NCBI GenBank assembly: GCA_913055635.1
Contig: CAJXLK010000035.1
Span: 1 to 47,335 of the forward strand
Origin: an uncultured Bacteroidota bacterium
GTDB taxonomy: Bacteria; Bacteroidota; Bacteroidia; Bacteroidales; UBA12077
Length of the DNA: 47,335 nucleotides
Direction of reading: 5' to 3'
Part shown: one piece after another, positions 29,905-46,617 of the stretch
How the letters are laid out: each line of letters opens with the position of its first letter
Numbering within the stretch: the first letter of the stretch is position 1
Position numbers and translations under genes: made by a program
The notes under the pieces: generated by a model
The model's database searches: none
What the model was told of the DNA's origin: nothing
What the model saw: only the letters and a program-made list of their open reading frames with translations

Positions 29905-30072
29905 CGACCGGCGGGTTCATGCAAGCCCCCCGGTCAGAGATTTTTACCATCCACCGGAAACCATATCAATTTGTTGCCGTACAAATTACATCCGGCGGTA
30001 TCCGTTTATCTATCGGTTAAAAGCTGAATGGCCGGCCCGCCATGCCATACGTCGAATGAAAAAAAAGCCTTG

Positions 30073-33000
30073 ATGCCTTCAAAGAAATTTTTGGATTACC
30101 TCGGGCAGAAACTTAAAACCGGTAATTTACGGTCGATTCACCTGAACACCCTTCCGGGTCGCTATGCCACCCGGTTGGACATGAACCGGCTGGATGTCAT
30201 CCAAACCGGAGTGGCGGAGGATTTTCTCGACCGGTTGCTGCGAACCCCCAACTTTAAGTTCCCCGTGTCTTTCAACCAGCTCAATTTCAACAGGATTGAA
30301 GATGAACGAAAAAAAGAACTGAATTACCTGGCCCGGAAGCTCAACGGGATGTATTACCAGAACAACGACAATTATTTTGAGCACGGCATCAAAACCTTTG
30401 GCCTGGGTTATCCCCTTCTGATCAAAAAGAGCCGCCAGGATCCGGAGAAGATCATCAAGGCGCCCCTGTTGGTGTGGCATCTGGACATCGACAAATCTTC
30501 GCGCAAGAGCAATGTCTGGGAGATCATCAAGGATGAAGACAGTCCGGTTGACATCAACGAGGTGTTGATTTCCTATCTCAAGCAGGATGAAGGCATCACA
30601 CTTCAGCAGCTCAGCAGCGATTACCTGGAGGATTCGGTCATTGACCGGGATGAATTGGTCCAGATCTGCCATGAGGTGCTGGATAAGCTTAATGCGGATC
30701 CGGAGCAGGATTTCACCGTGCAGGTCAACCCGGCCCCGGAAAGCCGAAGCATTGACCGGAAGACCGGGGACGTGCCATGGATAAGCTGGTCGGGCGTTTT
30801 TGGCCTGTACAAAGCCCAAAAGGAAAGCCTCATCAATGAAGTGGAGTACCTGAAGGCGAACCGCAAATCTTTTTACTTTGAAAAGTTGCCGCCACAGCCT
30901 TACCAAAAGACGAGCGTTTCGGGTGTAGCGACCGATCCCAGCCAGGAGCAGATCGTTAACGCCCTGAACCATAATTTGGCCCGGATCATACAGGGGCCAC
31001 CCGGTACCGGCAAGAGCCAGTCGTTGACGGCTATCATCACCAATGCCCTGGAAAGTGGTGCCAAATGCCTGGTGGTTTGTGAAAAGAAGACGGCCATGGA
31101 CGTGATCTACCACAACCTGGAGCAGAAGGGTCTGGGCCGGTTCGCGGCCATCATCGATGATGTGGGTCGTGACCGGCGAAAAATCATCGGGAAGGTTCGC
31201 AATACAGTCGACGAAGTGAAAGATTACACAGATTTCTACCGGCAAGTGGATTATCATTCCGCCCTGGACCGTTACAACCAGATCCGGACGGAGATCAACC
31301 GCCGCCACCAGGCTGTTTTGACACAGGTCCTGGGCGACGACACCTGGCAGGATGCCATCGGCCATTATATGGCCAACCGACACCTTAACAGGGATTCGGA
31401 TCCGTTGAAGACCCTGAGAAGTTCCCTCAACAGTTCCGACTATAGCTTTGATCATGAAGAGTTTAAGGCGCTGAGCCAGACCCTTAGAGACGGCCGATAC
31501 CACTGCGAAAAGATTAAAACCCGGCAGCATCCCCTGGAAAAACTGCGCTCAGATATTTTTCATCAACCTTACCTGAGAAGTACCCATCAGCAAATGGAAG
31601 AGGAGCTGGGTGCACTGGCAGAAGCCTGCCGCAACCTGATCAGCATGTATGACCAGTATGCGCAGCTGTATGGCAGGAAATTCTCCGCCAATAAACCCCT
31701 TCGGCGCAAAGCATTAGGCCTTCTGGCCTTGTTCACCGGGTATCATAAAAAAATTGTCAGGGCCAAACGCCAGGTTTATGCCCGGTATCTGGAATTGGCC
31801 CGCCGGCACGATCAGCAGCAACTTTTTGACTTTCATTTCGTTTACCGCAAACCAAAGGATTATAAGCAGCTGCGCAATAAAATTGAAGCTTATCAGGGTG
31901 AACTGAACACCCTGCTGGAGGCATTCGATCAATACCGTGAATTTCACGAATGGAAAAATTTTTATTTCAATCTGCCCGCCAAGCACAAGAATTTGCTGGA
32001 TGCGATGATTGACTGGAATGTGGAGGACCGGGAGGCGGCCTTCAGGGCCTGGTATTATGACCATGTGCTGGCCCGGTATGAAGAACAGCTGAGGCCTTTC
32101 CACGAGGACAGTTCCTTAATCAATGAATTCTTTGAAGTTGAGCGTTTTTTGAAAGAGAAGCAGGTTGAGCAGATCACCAATCTTTGGATTAAACGTCAAC
32201 AGGGGGCCATTGCGCGGTTTAAGCGGGAAAAGGGCAAGATCAACAGCCTTTATAATTACCGCAAGAATAAGAAATACGGGCGGAAGAACTCACTACGGAA
32301 GATTATCCATACCGATTTTCAGTTTTTCAGTGATATTTTTCCAGTGCTGATGGTCAATCCGGTTGTTTCGGGGTCTGTGTTGCCGATGGAAGAGGGACTT
32401 TTCGATGTGGTGATCTTTGATGAGGCCAGCCAGCTCAGGTTGGAGGATACGTTTCCTTCCTACCTGAAGGGCCGCTATAAGATCATATCGGGCGATGAGC
32501 ACCAGATGCCACCGAGCAACTATTTTGGCAAGGAAATCCCGCTGGGTATGGAGGAGGAAGAAGAGGATGGGCCGGATGCGGGGGATGAGTCTGAAGGTCC
32601 GGACACCGGCGAATGGGACGATTCCCTGGAGAATGCCACCAAAGAATCATTGCTTCAGTATGGGGTGGATTCAGGTTTTAATAAGTCCTATTTGGATTTC
32701 CATTACCGTTCGCGCCACCCTTTCCTGATCGACTTTTCCAACGCCGCTTTTTATGGTTCACGCCTGACTCCAACCCAGCCTAAGAATGGGGAAAGGCCGA
32801 TCCGTTTTATGCAGGTTGACGGCATTTACCGGAAAGACCGGACCAATCCGGCCGAAGTGGACTGGGTGGCGGATCTGCTGTTCAACCAGATCCCGGCCCT
32901 GTATGAAAAGGAGATGCCTTCGGTGGGTGTGGCTACCTTCAACATGAACCAGCGCGACCGCATCAATGACCGCCTGTTTAAGGAGATTTATGCCGATGAG

Positions 33001-34563
33001 GCAAAATACCATACTTATGAGAAGTTGCGCGAAAAGGGTTTGTTTGTAAAGAATTTGGAGAACATCCAGGGGGAGGAGCGCGACGTGATCATTCTTTCCA
33101 CCACTTTTGGCCGCGATGAGCAGGGCCGGCTGAAGCAGCATTTTGGTCCGATCAACCAGCGCCAGGGGTACAAGCTGTTTAATGTGATCATCACCCGGGC
33201 CCGGGAGAAGCTTTATGTGTGCACATCCGTCCCATCGGAGTTTTATGAGCGTTACAACCAGGAAATACCGGAGAAGGGCAATACAGGCAGGGCGGTTTTC
33301 TATGCCTATCTGGCATATGCACGGGCCGTTGAAAATGGGGATGAAGACACGCGCCAGGGTATCCTGAACCTTTTAAGTGAACAATATACCGATGATCAGC
33401 CTGCCCGGATGGGTGGAGACGGGGCTTCTCCCTTTAAACAGCAGGTGCGCCGTTACCTGGAGCAACATATTGATGCCGGCCGGATTGAGACCGGGTATGA
33501 GTATGGTGGTTTTCGTTTTGATTTTGTCATCCGCACGCGCGATACCGGGCATCCGATGATGGTTTTGGAGTGTGATGGGGCTTCACATCATTCCTCGCAG
33601 ACGGCTTATGCCCATGATCTTTTCCGGCAGAAGATTGTGGAACAGGACATGGGCCTTGAGTATTACCGGATATGGTCGACCCGGTGGTGGCCTGATCCCG
33701 AAAAGGAAGTGCAGGGTTTGGTGAACCACATTCAGCTGAAGGATGAAGAGGTAAAGGAGGAAAGGCAGGCCCATTCAGCGGCCGGAAAGGAAACGCCTTC
33801 GGGTGGGATCTTTTCCGGGGAAGAACAATCCGGATTCGAACCCCCTGATTTTGAACCCGTGGAGTCCGAACCTGCTGAGTCCGAACCCACCGATTCTGAA
33901 CCCGAGGAGTCCGAATCTTCTGATTCCGGGCTATCCGGCTCCGAGGCATCCGCTTCCACAAGGGCATATCGGGAAGACGATGCCGGTGAAGCTGCGGCCT
34001 CTTCCGGCCATAGTGGGCAAAACAGGGATCCTGGCAGGGGTCCGACCGGCAGATCGTCCGGGAATTTATCCGGGGAATCGTTTGAAGCTTCATCTGATCC
34101 GTCTTTCGGGCAGTCATCCGGCCGGTCTTCCGAAGAGCCGCCCGAAGATTCTTCCCGGGGGTCTTCCGAGGGGGCGCCCGAAGAGGGGTCTTCAGAAGGG
34201 CCGTCCGGGGAAGCCTCCAGAATCTCTTCCGTTGCGTCGTCCGGAGGGCCGTCCGGGGAGTTTCCGGCGAAGGAGGCGTCCACTCCCACCCAGGGGTTTG
34301 ATCAATCGGGCCGGAGAAAAAAGGTGACGGAGGATTCACAAGTGACGGTCAAAAACCTCAACGATTATCAACGCATTACTTTGGCCTTTACCAGGGATAA
34401 GGACAGGGAAGGAGCACGGGGAACCGGCCAGAAAGTGCTCCATATCCACTCGCCCGTGGCCAAATTGTTGCTCAGCAAAAGCCTTGGCGATCGTTTCAGA
34501 CTCGAAGGCCCCGAAAGCCACTACTACGAGATTATAGACATCGACGAGGGAGCTGAACAATAA
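30073..34563 (+). CDS. Upf1-like SF1 helicase - Vsr-type nuclease - GreA/B-like fusion
   Basis: As called, 1496 residues; an in-frame ATG at 30028 is less likely because the added 15 residues look random. An N-terminal region of about 290 residues precedes the helicase. Helicase motifs: Walker A QGPPGTGKS at 307-315, DEAS at 783-786 with GDEHQMPPS at 807, HYRSRHPFL, NIQGEERDVIILS, and VIITRARE near 1038. A long insert lies between motifs I and II. The nuclease is PD-(D/E)XK type: FDFVI (D1150), VLECDGASHHS (E1166, D1168) and YRIWSTRWW, the MTES_1575/Vsr pattern. A Ser/Glu/Pro-rich linker spans about 1228-1420. The last 75 residues (HIHSPVAKLLLSKSLGDRF, YYEIIDI) resemble the GreA/GreB C-terminal domain. 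No partner gene is adjacent. Roles in phage defence or transcription-linked repair are guesses. Confidence 0.9.
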   Translation: MPSKKFLDYLGQKLKTGNLRSIHLNTLPGRYATRLDMNRLDVIQTGVAEDFLDRLLRTPNFKFPVSFNQLNFNRIEDERKKELNYLARKLNGMYYQNNDNYFEHGIKTFGLGYPLLIKKSRQDPEKIIKAPLLVWHLDIDKSSRKSNVWEIIKDEDSPVDINEVLISYLKQDEGITLQQLSSDYLEDSVIDRDELVQICHEVLDKLNADPEQDFTVQVNPAPESRSIDRKTGDVPWISWSGVFGLYKAQKESLINEVEYLKANRKSFYFEKLPPQPYQKTSVSGVATDPSQEQIVNALNHNLARIIQGPPGTGKSQSLTAIITNALESGAKCLVVCEKKTAMDVIYHNLEQKGLGRFAAIIDDVGRDRRKIIGKVRNTVDEVKDYTDFYRQVDYHSALDRYNQIRTEINRRHQAVLTQVLGDDTWQDAIGHYMANRHLNRDSDPLKTLRSSLNSSDYSFDHEEFKALSQTLRDGRYHCEKIKTRQHPLEKLRSDIFHQPYLRSTHQQMEEELGALAEACRNLISMYDQYAQLYGRKFSANKPLRRKALGLLALFTGYHKKIVRAKRQVYARYLELARRHDQQQLFDFHFVYRKPKDYKQLRNKIEAYQGELNTLLEAFDQYREFHEWKNFYFNLPAKHKNLLDAMIDWNVEDREAAFRAWYYDHVLARYEEQLRPFHEDSSLINEFFEVERFLKEKQVEQITNLWIKRQQGAIARFKREKGKINSLYNYRKNKKYGRKNSLRKIIHTDFQFFSDIFPVLMVNPVVSGSVLPMEEGLFDVVIFDEASQLRLEDTFPSYLKGRYKIISGDEHQMPPSNYFGKEIPLGMEEEEEDGPDAGDESEGPDTGEWDDSLENATKESLLQYGVDSGFNKSYLDFHYRSRHPFLIDFSNAAFYGSRLTPTQPKNGERPIRFMQVDGIYRKDRTNPAEVDWVADLLFNQIPALYEKEMPSVGVATFNMNQRDRINDRLFKEIYADEAKYHTYEKLREKGLFVKNLENIQGEERDVIILSTTFGRDEQGRLKQHFGPINQRQGYKLFNVIITRAREKLYVCTSVPSEFYERYNQEIPEKGNTGRAVFYAYLAYARAVENGDEDTRQGILNLLSEQYTDDQPARMGGDGASPFKQQVRRYLEQHIDAGRIETGYEYGGFRFDFVIRTRDTGHPMMVLECDGASHHSSQTAYAHDLFRQKIVEQDMGLEYYRIWSTRWWPDPEKEVQGLVNHIQLKDEEVKEERQAHSAAGKETPSGGIFSGEEQSGFEPPDFEPVESEPAESEPTDSEPEESESSDSGLSGSEASASTRAYREDDAGEAAASSGHSGQNRDPGRGPTGRSSGNLSGESFEASSDPSFGQSSGRSSEEPPEDSSRGSSEGAPEEGSSEGPSGEASRISSVASSGGPSGEFPAKEASTPTQGFDQSGRRKKVTEDSQVTVKNLNDYQRITLAFTRDKDREGARGTGQKVLHIHSPVAKLLLSKSLGDRFRLEGPESHYYEIIDIDEGAEQ

Positions 34564-34596
34564 AAGGCCCATGCCTGATGCCGGCATGGGTCTTTT
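34562..34596 (+). terminator. strong intrinsic terminator after the helicase gene
   Basis: The helicase TAA is followed at once by AAAAGGCCCATGCC paired with GGCATGGGTCTTTT around a seven-base loop, a 14-pair stem including one G-T pair. T-rich and A-rich flanks on both sides would let it work in both directions, which suits the convergent S9 peptidase gene. Confidence 0.85.
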
Positions 34597-43668: not shown

Positions 43669-46617
43669 ATGAGACCTTCATTTCATCTTAACCGGATCGT
43701 TCTCCTTTTAGCTGTTCCTTTATTTTTGTTATTCAGCTGCCGGACGGTGGTGGAAACCGAAGAATATTCCCCGGTAATCGACCAGGAGAGCCGTGAACTG
43801 GTGGATCAGAATTATAAGGCTGTCATGGATGAGAAGCCTTCCGTGGACAATGCCCGGGCCAATTTACGGATGCTGGAGAAAAATAAATACCGCTACGAAA
43901 CCACCATAAAAAAGTACATCAAATATGAAAAGGGAAAAGGCGGAAAGGTGGGTATGCATTCATTTGGTGTACTTCTTGATGGTTTGGCTATCGCGGCTCT
44001 GGTACATCAGGGTGGCCTGGATTCATTTGGAGAGCAACTCCTGCTGGCCGGATTAAGTGGCGGCTTTGGTGTGGTACTCCATATTGCAGCCGGGAAAAAC
44101 GACACCCATTATGCCAGTAAAATCAAAAAACGCGACGGGCCGGTCAAATTTAAATACAAACAGGAACCCATTAAAAATAAGCCCATTGATGTATCTTCCA
44201 ACGGCCATATCAACAGCTATCAAACCAATGCGCACGGAGAGATATCGGTTCCTGTAGATGATTTTGGTGTGCCCTCCTTTATGCGGACCTCCAAAGCCTA
44301 CACCTTTCATTTTGCACTGAATGATCAGCCATTTATAAACACCCTTCAGCTGAACAGTTCCAGTTGGATGGAGCCTTATGGGGTGGTTAGCCGGGATAAG
44401 ACTCCCCTGCAAAAAAGCACTTCTCAGTATAGCACCACCCTGGCAAAGCTTCCCGGAGGTTTCAACGCTCCGGTAGTAAAACAAGATGAATCCTGGAATT
44501 CAATGGTTTATAAAGGAGATAAAGGCTGGGTGCGGGATAAGCACTTAAATGTTTTTTATTTCAGGTCTGATCTGGACTTATACAATTGCCAGACTGATCA
44601 ATTTGCTCAGTACACGAAATATTTCGAGCCCAAGAGTGAATTTGAATACCAAAAAGAATATAAAAAACGCCTGGAGGAAGGCAGGAAACTTCAGGCCTCT
44701 GTATTAAAGGACTGCATGAAGCAAGCCCGGCGGGAGCGAAAGATGCAGATCAAAAATTCCTATGAGCAGATCAAATTGGCTGGTTTCAGGCTTGGCGATT
44801 ATGATTTATCGGATCAGACTTATTCGATCACTGTCAAAGGGGAGACCTACCGGTTGAAGATGGACCGTGATGCTGCCCGGCAATTGAAGCAGCACAGGGA
44901 AGATGTTCGGATTTCTGCGGTGCGCCAGTTGCAGGAGGATGGCGAATCTTATGATCTTTTCAACATGGAACTGACGCATCCGGTTACAGGTAAAACCTAT
45001 GCCTTTGGGCAACAGAAAGAGCCCTTGTATGTTGATTATGAGCCACAGGGGGAAACCGGCATGGGCGGCATACCGGAGTTGGAAGTTACTGATCTGTCTT
45101 TTTCTGAGCCTTCGGGGAATGATAAGCTTGATGCAGGTGAGGATGCTTCCTTCACTTTGAAAATCAAAAACAAGGGGAATGGGCGGGCGCAAAACATCAC
45201 CGCTTCGATGTCCTCACAGGTCAGTCAGGGCCTTTCTTATGAACAACAGCAATATCTATCGGGCATTGCTCCGGGAAAAAGCCGGAAGGTTACTTTCTCC
45301 GTGTCGACCGATAAGAAGTTGCCCGAAGGCGACATTGGTTTTGACTTTTCTTTCCGAGAGGCCAATGGTTTCCCCCCTGATGATTTCACTTATCCGGTCA
45401 CTGCCGAAGCTTTCAAGGCACCCCATTTGGCTTTGTTCAATACCACCATCGAAGAGCAGAGGAGCCACAACAACAACGGGCAAATCGAGAAGGCCGAAGT
45501 GATCCGTGCCCGTATGAAGGTGATCAACCAGGGAGAAGGTACTGCCCGCGATGTTCATGCCAACCTTCACATCGCCAACCCCAACATCAAACTCATCAAC
45601 AGCCGAACAAATCATGCCCTGGGCAAGATGGAGCCCGGTGCCATCGAAACCGTTGATTTTAGCTTTGCCGTCAACAAAGAATATGATGGCTCGTCAGAGC
45701 TGCCCGTTCAATTAACATTGCTATCAGAGGATAGCAAACAATACGGAGGGGATTATCCCCTCAAGCTTTCTCTTCACCGGGGAAATCCCCCCAGGCCCCC
45801 GGAATTCATCCCCGATGTGGATCAAAATATTCCCACCACCGGCAGGTCGAAGGACAATGCCGTGGCGGTGGTGATCGGCAATGAGGATTACAAGGAGACT
45901 GAAGATGTGGAATACGCCATTAACGATGCGGAAACGGTGAAGCAGTACCTGGTCAGGATGCTGGGGTATAAGGAGGAAAATGTGTATGTGGAAAAGAATG
46001 CCTCTAAAGGGGTCTTCGAGACCTATTTCGGCACCGAAGACAATTACAGGGGTAAGCTCTACCACCAGGTAAAACCCGGCAAGTCGGAGGTGTTTGTATA
46101 CTATTCCGGCCATGGCGCCCCCGATGTTCAGCAACAGAAGGGCTATTTTGTGCCGGTCGAATGTGATCCCCAATACGTGGCACAAGGAGGTTACCAGCGG
46201 AACATCCTTTACAACAACCTGGCCCGCTTACCTGCCCGCAAAACCACGGTGGTGGTGGACGCCTGTTTCTCGGGTAAAAACATCCTGGGAGATGCCAAAA
46301 TCATCCAGCCGAAGATCAATAACCCTTCATTCACCATGCAAAACGGGGTGCTGTTGACTTCTTCCAGGGGAAACCAGGTTTCGAGGACTTACAACGAGAA
46401 ACAGCACAGCCTCTATACATACTATTTCCTGAAGGCCCTCAAGGAAAAGGAAACAACCGATCAAAACGGCGACGGGCAGCTCACCTATGGGGAGATCCAC
46501 GATTATGTGTCGGATAACAGCGAAGGGGTTCCCTATATATCGAGGAGTAAATTCGGTAGCGTGCAGATGCCTACCATCACCGAAAGCGGCGCGGATGAAG
46601 TGTTTATAACCTACTGA
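43669..46617 (+). CDS. lipoprotein with C-terminal caspase-like (C14) domain
   Basis: The 982-residue protein has a lipobox LFSC (Cys24). A region of unknown fold occupies about 30-460 and includes a hydrophobic stretch near 105-145 and a Lys/Arg-rich coiled segment near 330-380. Two CARDB/APHP-like beta-sandwich domains cover about 465-725 (ASFTLKIKNKGNGRAQNITASM; ARMKVINQGEGTARDVHANL). The caspase domain runs from about 745: VAVVIGNEDYKE, catalytic His815 in YYSGHGAP and Cys866 in VDACFSGK. An EF-hand-like loop DQNGDGQLTYGE starts at 931, suggesting calcium control. It is anchored in the envelope, so it is probably a protease of surface or periplasmic targets rather than a cell-death effector. 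Confidence 0.92.
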   Translation: MRPSFHLNRIVLLLAVPLFLLFSCRTVVETEEYSPVIDQESRELVDQNYKAVMDEKPSVDNARANLRMLEKNKYRYETTIKKYIKYEKGKGGKVGMHSFGVLLDGLAIAALVHQGGLDSFGEQLLLAGLSGGFGVVLHIAAGKNDTHYASKIKKRDGPVKFKYKQEPIKNKPIDVSSNGHINSYQTNAHGEISVPVDDFGVPSFMRTSKAYTFHFALNDQPFINTLQLNSSSWMEPYGVVSRDKTPLQKSTSQYSTTLAKLPGGFNAPVVKQDESWNSMVYKGDKGWVRDKHLNVFYFRSDLDLYNCQTDQFAQYTKYFEPKSEFEYQKEYKKRLEEGRKLQASVLKDCMKQARRERKMQIKNSYEQIKLAGFRLGDYDLSDQTYSITVKGETYRLKMDRDAARQLKQHREDVRISAVRQLQEDGESYDLFNMELTHPVTGKTYAFGQQKEPLYVDYEPQGETGMGGIPELEVTDLSFSEPSGNDKLDAGEDASFTLKIKNKGNGRAQNITASMSSQVSQGLSYEQQQYLSGIAPGKSRKVTFSVSTDKKLPEGDIGFDFSFREANGFPPDDFTYPVTAEAFKAPHLALFNTTIEEQRSHNNNGQIEKAEVIRARMKVINQGEGTARDVHANLHIANPNIKLINSRTNHALGKMEPGAIETVDFSFAVNKEYDGSSELPVQLTLLSEDSKQYGGDYPLKLSLHRGNPPRPPEFIPDVDQNIPTTGRSKDNAVAVVIGNEDYKETEDVEYAINDAETVKQYLVRMLGYKEENVYVEKNASKGVFETYFGTEDNYRGKLYHQVKPGKSEVFVYYSGHGAPDVQQQKGYFVPVECDPQYVAQGGYQRNILYNNLARLPARKTTVVVDACFSGKNILGDAKIIQPKINNPSFTMQNGVLLTSSRGNQVSRTYNEKQHSLYTYYFLKALKEKETTDQNGDGQLTYGEIHDYVSDNSEGVPYISRSKFGSVQMPTITESGADEVFITY

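What the first reader, a model, noticed from the sequence alone, without database searches (positions are those of the whole stretch)
30073..34563. Helicase, Vsr-type nuclease and GreA/B-like domain in one protein
Seen: complete SF1 motifs, a D1150/E1166/D1168 nuclease site, a 190-residue Ser/Glu linker, and a last 75 residues with the HSPVAKLLLSKSLGDRF pattern of the GreA/GreB C-terminal domain. Known: Upf1-like helicases with MTES_1575/Vsr nucleases occur in defence and conflict systems; GreA/B C-terminal domains contact RNA polymerase near the secondary channel. Inference: the tail may tether the helicase-nuclease to transcription complexes, giving a transcription-linked defence or repair enzyme. 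I do not know a described system with this order.
Basis: partly seen in the sequence, partly recalled or inferred. Interest (0 to 1): 0.72.

Follow-up and report, generated by a model that had tools for sequence, protein, structure and literature searches.

The report
Helicase-nuclease with RNA-polymerase-docking tail
A bacterial gene joins a helicase and a DNA-cutting domain, of a kind used against viruses, to the docking domain with which GreA-type factors sit on RNA polymerase; other bacteria carry the same join on distant versions of the enzyme, so it may be an immune enzyme that rides on transcription.

Summary
With Gre-type rows added, a model of the tail (pLDDT 80.5) has Gre-family chains as its best 14 PDB matches. 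The Gre coiled coil with the catalytic tip is absent.

New here: the tail is not unique. I found it on 12 proteins of three distant helicase-nuclease lineages; 10 tails are shown over the Pfam cut-off. A core tree needs 6 gains or losses (5 forced), and tails look exchanged between lineages. One lineage groups with Hhe, which NCBI names anti-phage and which lacks the tail. Five of 12 loci lie beside strong matches to defence genes; the window copy does not.

Best reading: an accessory, probably anti-phage helicase-nuclease docked on RNA polymerase by its tail. Polymerase binding and defence are inferred, not shown. I found no description of this order in a limited library. New variant of a known kind.

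The parts
30073..34563 (+). whole gene, 1496 aa: DUF4011, SF1 helicase, MTES_1575 nuclease, linker, Gre C-terminal domain
   Evidence: in-frame upstream ATG at 30028 also possible
30310..30579 (+). DUF4011 match, residues 80-169 (only model positions 71-158 of 158)
   Evidence: 27.7 bits, cut-off 22.2
30937..31413 (+). helicase first part (AAA_11, residues 289-447) with Walker A K314
   Evidence: invariant in 9 sequences
32641..33222 (+). helicase second part (AAA_12, residues 857-1050), motifs IV-VI
   Evidence: motifs
33433..33732 (+). MTES_1575 (Vsr-like) nuclease, residues 1121-1220, D1150/E1166/D1168
33778..34317 (+). low-complexity Ser/Glu/Gly/Pro linker, residues 1236-1415
   Evidence: composition
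34318..34545 (+). GreA/GreB C-terminal domain, residues 1416-1491, with S1460-P1461 loop and G1472-D1473
34568..34596 (.). inverted repeat CCCATGCC...GGCATGGG followed by a T-rich run: terminator-like, between the gene and the convergent S9 peptidase gene
   Evidence: read by eye; no terminator scan was run

Best explanation
An accessory, probably anti-phage, helicase-nuclease that uses a captured Gre C-terminal domain to dock on RNA polymerase. Shown: the domain order, and that this domain sits on three distant lineages of one helicase-nuclease family with several gains or losses and signs of tail exchange. Inferred: the tail binds the beta-prime rim helices at the mouth of the secondary channel, as globular domains of Gre factors do. 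It cannot itself provoke transcript cleavage, since the coiled coil with its acidic tip is missing. The flexible linker lets the Upf1-like motor and the Vsr-like nuclease reach nucleic acid beside the docked polymerase. On invading DNA, heavily transcribed and perhaps rich in stalled polymerases or R-loops, the motor would load on exposed single strands and the nuclease would cut. The tail would be an interchangeable targeting module, in the position where relatives carry DUF3320, WGR or other tails.
For: Pfam PF01272 over the cut-off is shown for 10 of 12 tails (window 33.0; G009 32.3 and G018 30.8; G655 43.5; G804 52.2, G1094 38.7, L126 34.6, G1088 34.1, L174 31.6, G737 28.8); G434 matched too, bits not shown. 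Fold with Gre rows. Tail presence needs 6 changes on the core tree, 5 forced. Tail exchange: tails of G655 and G009 48.7% identical while cores are 27.6%; tails of G009 and G018 32.5% while cores are 60.5%. Accessory: no near-full-length match in the 24 other genomes of the family. Defence neighbours at 5 of 12 loci: G655 DzbA/DzbB and G018 HsdM with PDC-S13 and G645 Avs4, L126 HsdM-HsdS-HsdR, L174 GmrSD-type gene then relatives of the L126 HsdM, HsdS and HsdR. L126 scores 842.6 bits to Hhe and 1117.7 bits to PDC-S37. Literature: Gre and DksA globular domains bind the rim helices and GreA S121P binds poorly (PMC7527559); Rnk, with a coiled coil too short to reach the active centre, binds RNA polymerase and competes with Gre and DksA (PMC4598747).
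Against: PMC7527559 states that both GreA domains seem required for specific binding. GreA S121, whose change to Pro cuts binding, aligns with H1457 here, and S124L in GreA still binds, so the kept Ser-Pro is weak evidence for binding. The Ser is lost in G737, G645, L126 and L174. The G645 tail scores only 20.9 bits, under the cut-off. The single-sequence fold shows no Gre match. The window copy has no strong defence neighbour among 10 neighbours scanned (weak caspase 30.4, methyltransferase mad2 81.7 and CARF/HTH matches only), and 7 of 12 loci are not counted as beside defence genes. No background rate of defence neighbours was measured. Hhe has no Gre tail, so defence in this family does not need it.
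Confidence: 0.45

Rival explanations
1. Transcription-coupled genome maintenance: the tail brings helicase and nuclease to the cell's own stalled or backtracked RNA polymerase, to clear R-loops or remove the polymerase, as HelD, UvrD or Mfd do (UvrD and Mfd recalled).
For: HelD is an SF1-like NTPase with a Gre-like arm that recycles RNA polymerase (PMC7749165, passages); HelD chains appear at ranks 15 and 21 of the fold search, not significant. 7 of 12 tailed loci, the window among them, are not counted as beside defence genes.
Against: Patchy spread: absent from the 4 other genomes of the genus searched, one of them only 57% complete. Defence neighbours at 5 of 12 loci. Kinship of one tailed lineage with Hhe. 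HelD has no nuclease.
Confidence: 0.2
2. The Gre fold is used as a protein-protein module for something other than RNA polymerase, for example a type I R-M subunit or a partner of the helicase; or as a decoy that senses phage proteins aimed at the secondary channel.
For: GreA S121 and the EAD segment are not kept in the helicase tails; tails of G737, G645, L126 and L174 lack the loop serine; tailed genes stand beside HsdM in lineages two and three.
Against: The proline, the following alanine or glycine and the glycine before the turn are kept across three lineages, and 10 of 12 tails are shown over the Pfam cut-off; the P0001-like loci mostly lack R-M neighbours.
Confidence: 0.2
3. The tail is a passive remnant of domain shuffling with no separate function.
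For: Tail comes and goes between near relatives; the G645 tail is strongly diverged (20.9 bits).
Against: Tail fold recurs on three lineages, and tail identity between close relatives is near that of the core (G655/G434 95.0% against 91.7%, G1094/G1088 67.5% against 66.7%, L126/L174 73.8% against 81.0%), so it is held as well as the core.
Confidence: 0.1

Closest known systems
Hhe (NCBIfam NF042953, PADLOC PDLC02194), DUF4011 anti-phage protein
   Same: DUF4011/SF1 helicase with MTES_1575-type nuclease; lineage three (L126) scores 842.6 bits to it and groups with it
   Different: Window protein scores 297.2 bits against a cut-off of 2000. The Klebsiella Hhe looked at has another C-terminal tail and no Gre domain
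ProA (NCBIfam NF058533) and PADLOC candidate PDC-S37
   Same: Same core; ProA 458.7 bits, PDC-S37 456.9 bits
   Different: ProA cut-off of 1500 not met; the matches stop before the Gre tail
GreA, GreB, Gfh1, Rnk
   Same: Globular C-terminal domain by Pfam and by model
   Different: No N-terminal coiled coil; joined to a helicase-nuclease
HelD
   Same: SF1-type NTPase with a Gre-like RNA-polymerase-binding element (PMC7749165, passages)
   Different: Gre-like part is N-terminal with a long coiled coil, UvrD-like core, no nuclease; here only the globular domain, at the C-terminus of a Upf1-like core with a nuclease

Membership tests
GreA_GreB C-terminal domain (PF01272) | profile score over the curated cut-off | tested here: met
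   33.0 bits for the tail alone, 31.8 bits, cut-off 26.9; 25.8 bits in the whole protein, just under
GreA_GreB C-terminal domain (PF01272) | Gre globular fold | tested here: met
   with Gre rows in the alignment; not seen from the sequence alone
GreA_GreB C-terminal domain (PF01272) | binding to RNA polymerase rim helices | not testable with these tools
   inferred from PMC7527559 and PMC4598747 passages
Gre transcript cleavage factor | N-terminal coiled coil with acidic tip (PF03449) | tested here: not met
   no PF03449 match at E up to 1 in the window protein; a GreA control matches it
DUF4011/SF1/MTES_1575 helicase-nuclease | DUF4011, helicase and nuclease matches over cut-offs, conserved motifs | tested here: met
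Hhe (NF042953) | equivalog cut-off of 2000 bits | tested here: not met
   297.2 bits
ProA (NF058533) | equivalog cut-off of 1500 bits | tested here: not met
   458.7 bits
Anti-phage defence gene | protection against phage | not testable with these tools
   indirect only: neighbours at 5 of 12 loci
HelD | N-terminal Gre-like arm with long coiled coil on a UvrD-like core | tested here: not met
   Gre part is C-terminal and without coiled coil; core is AAA_11/AAA_12, best PDB sequence hit SMUBP-2; HelD features from PMC7749165

The most novel reading that the evidence does not exclude
A class of transcription-riding immune nucleases: several lineages of Hhe-like helicase-nucleases have repeatedly gained, and exchanged, a Gre docking domain that puts them on RNA polymerase, so that foreign DNA is found by its being transcribed (or by a phage's attack on the polymerase) and is unwound and cut there. 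Some type I R-M operons carry such a protein as an extra member.
Probability: 0.35. Interest if true: 0.85.

Novelty: new variant of a known kind. Interest (0 to 1): 0.62.

Why it matters
Known anti-phage nucleases are mostly thought to find their target by DNA sequence, modification, ends or damage (established knowledge, not from a call). A docking domain for host RNA polymerase on several lineages of one immune-type helicase-nuclease would point to target choice through transcription. It gives a simple test: remove or swap the 75-residue tail and ask whether polymerase binding and protection go together. It would also show Gre-type globular domains put to a use outside transcript cleavage.

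Tried and rejected
Considered and rejected. (1) Chance similarity of the tail: 10 of 12 tails are shown over the Pfam cut-off, and my own Gre profile gave no hit on 23 tail-less relatives. (2) A one-off fusion or assembly slip: 11 further proteins carry the tail. (3) A vertical housekeeping gene: against this, and flanks in relatives. The RND pump with its P-II-like neighbour occurs in G004 (L200) and G010 (L203), and the S9 gene in G001, G002 and G004 (L201, L202, L204), without the helicase in the stretches read. The two flanks are not side by side there, so no clean empty site was shown. (4) Membership of Hhe or ProA: cut-offs not met. (5) One origin of all tails: neither shown nor rejected (p-AU 0.438; long branches make that tree weak).

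Led nowhere: single-sequence fold; viral-contig scans with A3, L044, L089 and own GreA; phmmer of the tail against PDB sequences (0 hits); phage records (1 record matched the whole protein, not looked at further); paper searches for the domain order; two Gre structure papers not held; no paper about Hhe itself seen in the listings. The library holds open-licence papers only, so absence is weak evidence.

Rows dropped: L088 (ORF chosen looked like LeuRS) was left out of the segment scan, so 29 of 30 class loci plus L126 and Hhe were scanned, and those 30 loci are only the best of the MTES_1575 matches. Relatives G713, G428, G623 and G733 (1211-1228 aa), which match only to about residue 1105, many further weaker matches, and the plasmid relatives except Flammeovirga and one Sinorhizobium were not put in the tree. 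L149 (a Gre-like C-terminal domain on a 176-aa frame that is not an ordinary GreA) was kept apart in the tail tree. One search lists only the best matches, so 5 of 385 is a lower bound.

Full report
What is there. window:30073-34563 (+) is one open frame of 1496 codons. Pfam finds DUF4011 (residues 80-169), AAA_11 and AAA_12 (within 289-1050), the MTES_1575 restriction-type nuclease (1121-1220, 67.4 bits) and at the end the GreA/GreB C-terminal domain: 25.8 bits in the whole protein, 33.0 bits in the tail alone, cut-off 26.9; the own-genome search gives 31.8 bits. SF1 motif residues and the D1150/E1166/D1168 triad are invariant in 9 aligned sequences, window and 8 relatives. Best PDB sequence hits are SMUBP-2, then, weakly, SEN1 and UPF1. 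Between nuclease and tail lies a low-complexity linker of about 180 residues.

Is the tail a Gre domain? The profile says so. The tail folded alone gave a poor model (pLDDT 51.8) with no useful match. With 11 more rows, two of them tails of other helicases and nine GreA-type domains from viral contigs, it gave pLDDT 80.5 and pTM 0.69, and the best 14 PDB matches are Gfh1, Rnk, GreA, GreB or chimeras of them (9 at E 0.001 or less). HelD, an SF1-like NTPase bound to RNA polymerase, follows at ranks 15 and 21 without significance. The model leans on the GreA rows; the Pfam result does not. The Gre N-terminal coiled coil (PF03449) is not found, so this is not a cleavage factor. The genome has a separate GreA (G000:C9, 86.8 bits).

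The tail recurs. Several near relatives of the core end soon after the nuclease: Chitinophaga costaii, a Flammeovirga plasmid protein, and G190, G350 and G117 of the same order. Others carry the tail. P0001-like: G655, G434, G804, G1094, G1088 and, strongly diverged, G645. A second lineage of about 1800 aa, 25% identical to the window protein over the compared 760-795 core positions: G009 and G018 of the window's own family, and G737. A third lineage in two viral contigs: L126 (1709 aa, open at its start) and L174 (partial). With the window that makes 12 proteins. PF01272 over the cut-off is shown for 10: window, G009 and G018, G655, G737, G804, G1094, G1088, L126 and L174. G434 matches as well, bits not shown, and is 95.0% identical to the G655 tail. 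G645 stays under the cut-off (20.9 bits). In a sample of 385 genomes of the phylum, 5 had a tailed frame of over 1400 aa; every other listed match lies in a frame of 156-222 aa (the list is cut, so a lower bound).

Gains, losses, exchange. On a tree of 35 cores with the tails taken off, tail presence (12 with, 23 without) needs 6 changes, 5 of them forced by well supported branches (a quick tree with long branches flagged). The third lineage falls in one group with Hhe, L125 and L124 (SH-aLRT 99). The tails of G655 and G009 are 48.7% identical while the cores are 27.6%; the tails of G009 and G018 are 32.5% while the cores are 60.5%. A tree of the tails puts eight tails of lineages one and two together (91/96), but cannot say whether all tails have one origin (p-AU 0.438). 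The simplest reading is exchange of a tail module. In 29 class loci plus L126 and Hhe, the C-terminal segment carries DUF3320 in 9, GreA_GreB in 6 and WGR in 4 of 31.

Surroundings. At the window the upstream genes are an RND efflux operon (OEP, HlyD-type, AcrB-type) and a PG0541-family P-II-like protein; downstream is a convergent S9 peptidase, with a terminator-like repeat between, read by eye. Of 10 neighbours scanned with PADLOC, none gave a strong specific match: a caspase domain protein 9 kb downstream (30.4 bits), a general methyltransferase match (mad2, 81.7 bits) and a weak CARF match in a LuxR-type protein. The gene is accessory: no near-full-length match in the 24 other genomes of the family, 4 of them in the genus, and relatives hold the flanking genes without it in the stretches read. 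Elsewhere: G655 lies beside DzbA (481.3 bits) and DzbB (204.3 bits); G645 beside a KAP-type NTPase and Avs4 (1526.4 bits); G018 beside HsdM and a PDC-S13 match. In L126 the stop overlaps the next start (TAATG), and HsdM, HsdS and HsdR follow. In L174 a GmrSD-type restriction gene follows (131.5 and 82.1 bits), then relatives of the L126 HsdM (81%), HsdS (41%) and HsdR (69%). That is 5 of 12. Not counted: G1094 beside a kinase with broad PADLOC matches and G1088 with weak ones, G434, G804, G737 (neighbours not all scanned), G009 (contig ends) and the window. No background rate was measured.

How it probably works. [quoted passage not shown] GreA S121P binds poorly, while S124L still binds (PMC7527559, passages). 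[quoted passage not shown] Against this, PMC7527559 says that both GreA domains seem required for specific binding. In the helicase tails the proline that matches GreA P125 is kept in 12 of 12 and the serine before it in 8 of 12; GreA S121 aligns with H1457. I infer that the tail docks the enzyme on RNA polymerase and that motor and nuclease act on nucleic acid near transcription. Defence is favoured over repair by the patchy spread, the neighbours, and the kinship of the third lineage with Hhe (842.6 bits), which NCBI names an anti-phage protein; Hhe itself has no Gre tail. I did not see the experimental basis of Hhe and know it from recall only.

Comparison. It works like an RNA-polymerase-bound SF1 enzyme (HelD is nearest in kind: PMC7749165, passages) and like a Hhe-type helicase-nuclease, but I file it as neither: the Hhe and ProA cut-offs are not met, and HelD's Gre-like arm is N-terminal with a long coiled coil. 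It is a DUF4011/SF1/MTES_1575 helicase-nuclease with a GreA_GreB C-terminal domain, a new variant. No paper with this order was seen in the listings; PMC10250203 (passages) mentions a DUF4011 gene as a flank of a defence hotspot. Public domain databases may list the architecture; none was consulted beyond the libraries named.

Verdict. Observation confirmed; interpretation partly supported, and strengthened by recurrence on three lineages; binding and defence remain to be tested.

Noticed in passing
window 43669-46617 (+): 982-aa protein with CARDB and a caspase-type Peptidase_C14 domain; weak PADLOC caspase match of 30.4 bits.
   Followed up: no
L093 3041-8482 (-), and L081, L082, L084, L085: Other MTES_1575 helicase-nucleases end in a WGR domain (4 of 31 segments; L093 by eye), a second kind of interchangeable tail.
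   Followed up: partly
L088 34-3258 (-): A frame whose end looks by eye like leucyl-tRNA synthetase overlaps a MTES_1575 match of 44.2 bits, perhaps a nuclease-like insert.
   Followed up: no
L149 1420-1947 (-): 176-aa frame with a Gre-type C-terminal domain but an N-terminal part unlike GreA; it groups weakly with helicase tails (82/78).
   Followed up: no
L171 586-6321 (+), L124 and L125: Hhe and the viral relatives L124 and L125 share a further C-terminal segment that looks alike by eye and gave no named tail family that I could single out.
   Followed up: no
L044, L045, L092, about 280 residues before the Gre tail: The second lineage has a conserved segment of unknown fold between nuclease and Gre tail (alignment A3).
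   Followed up: no
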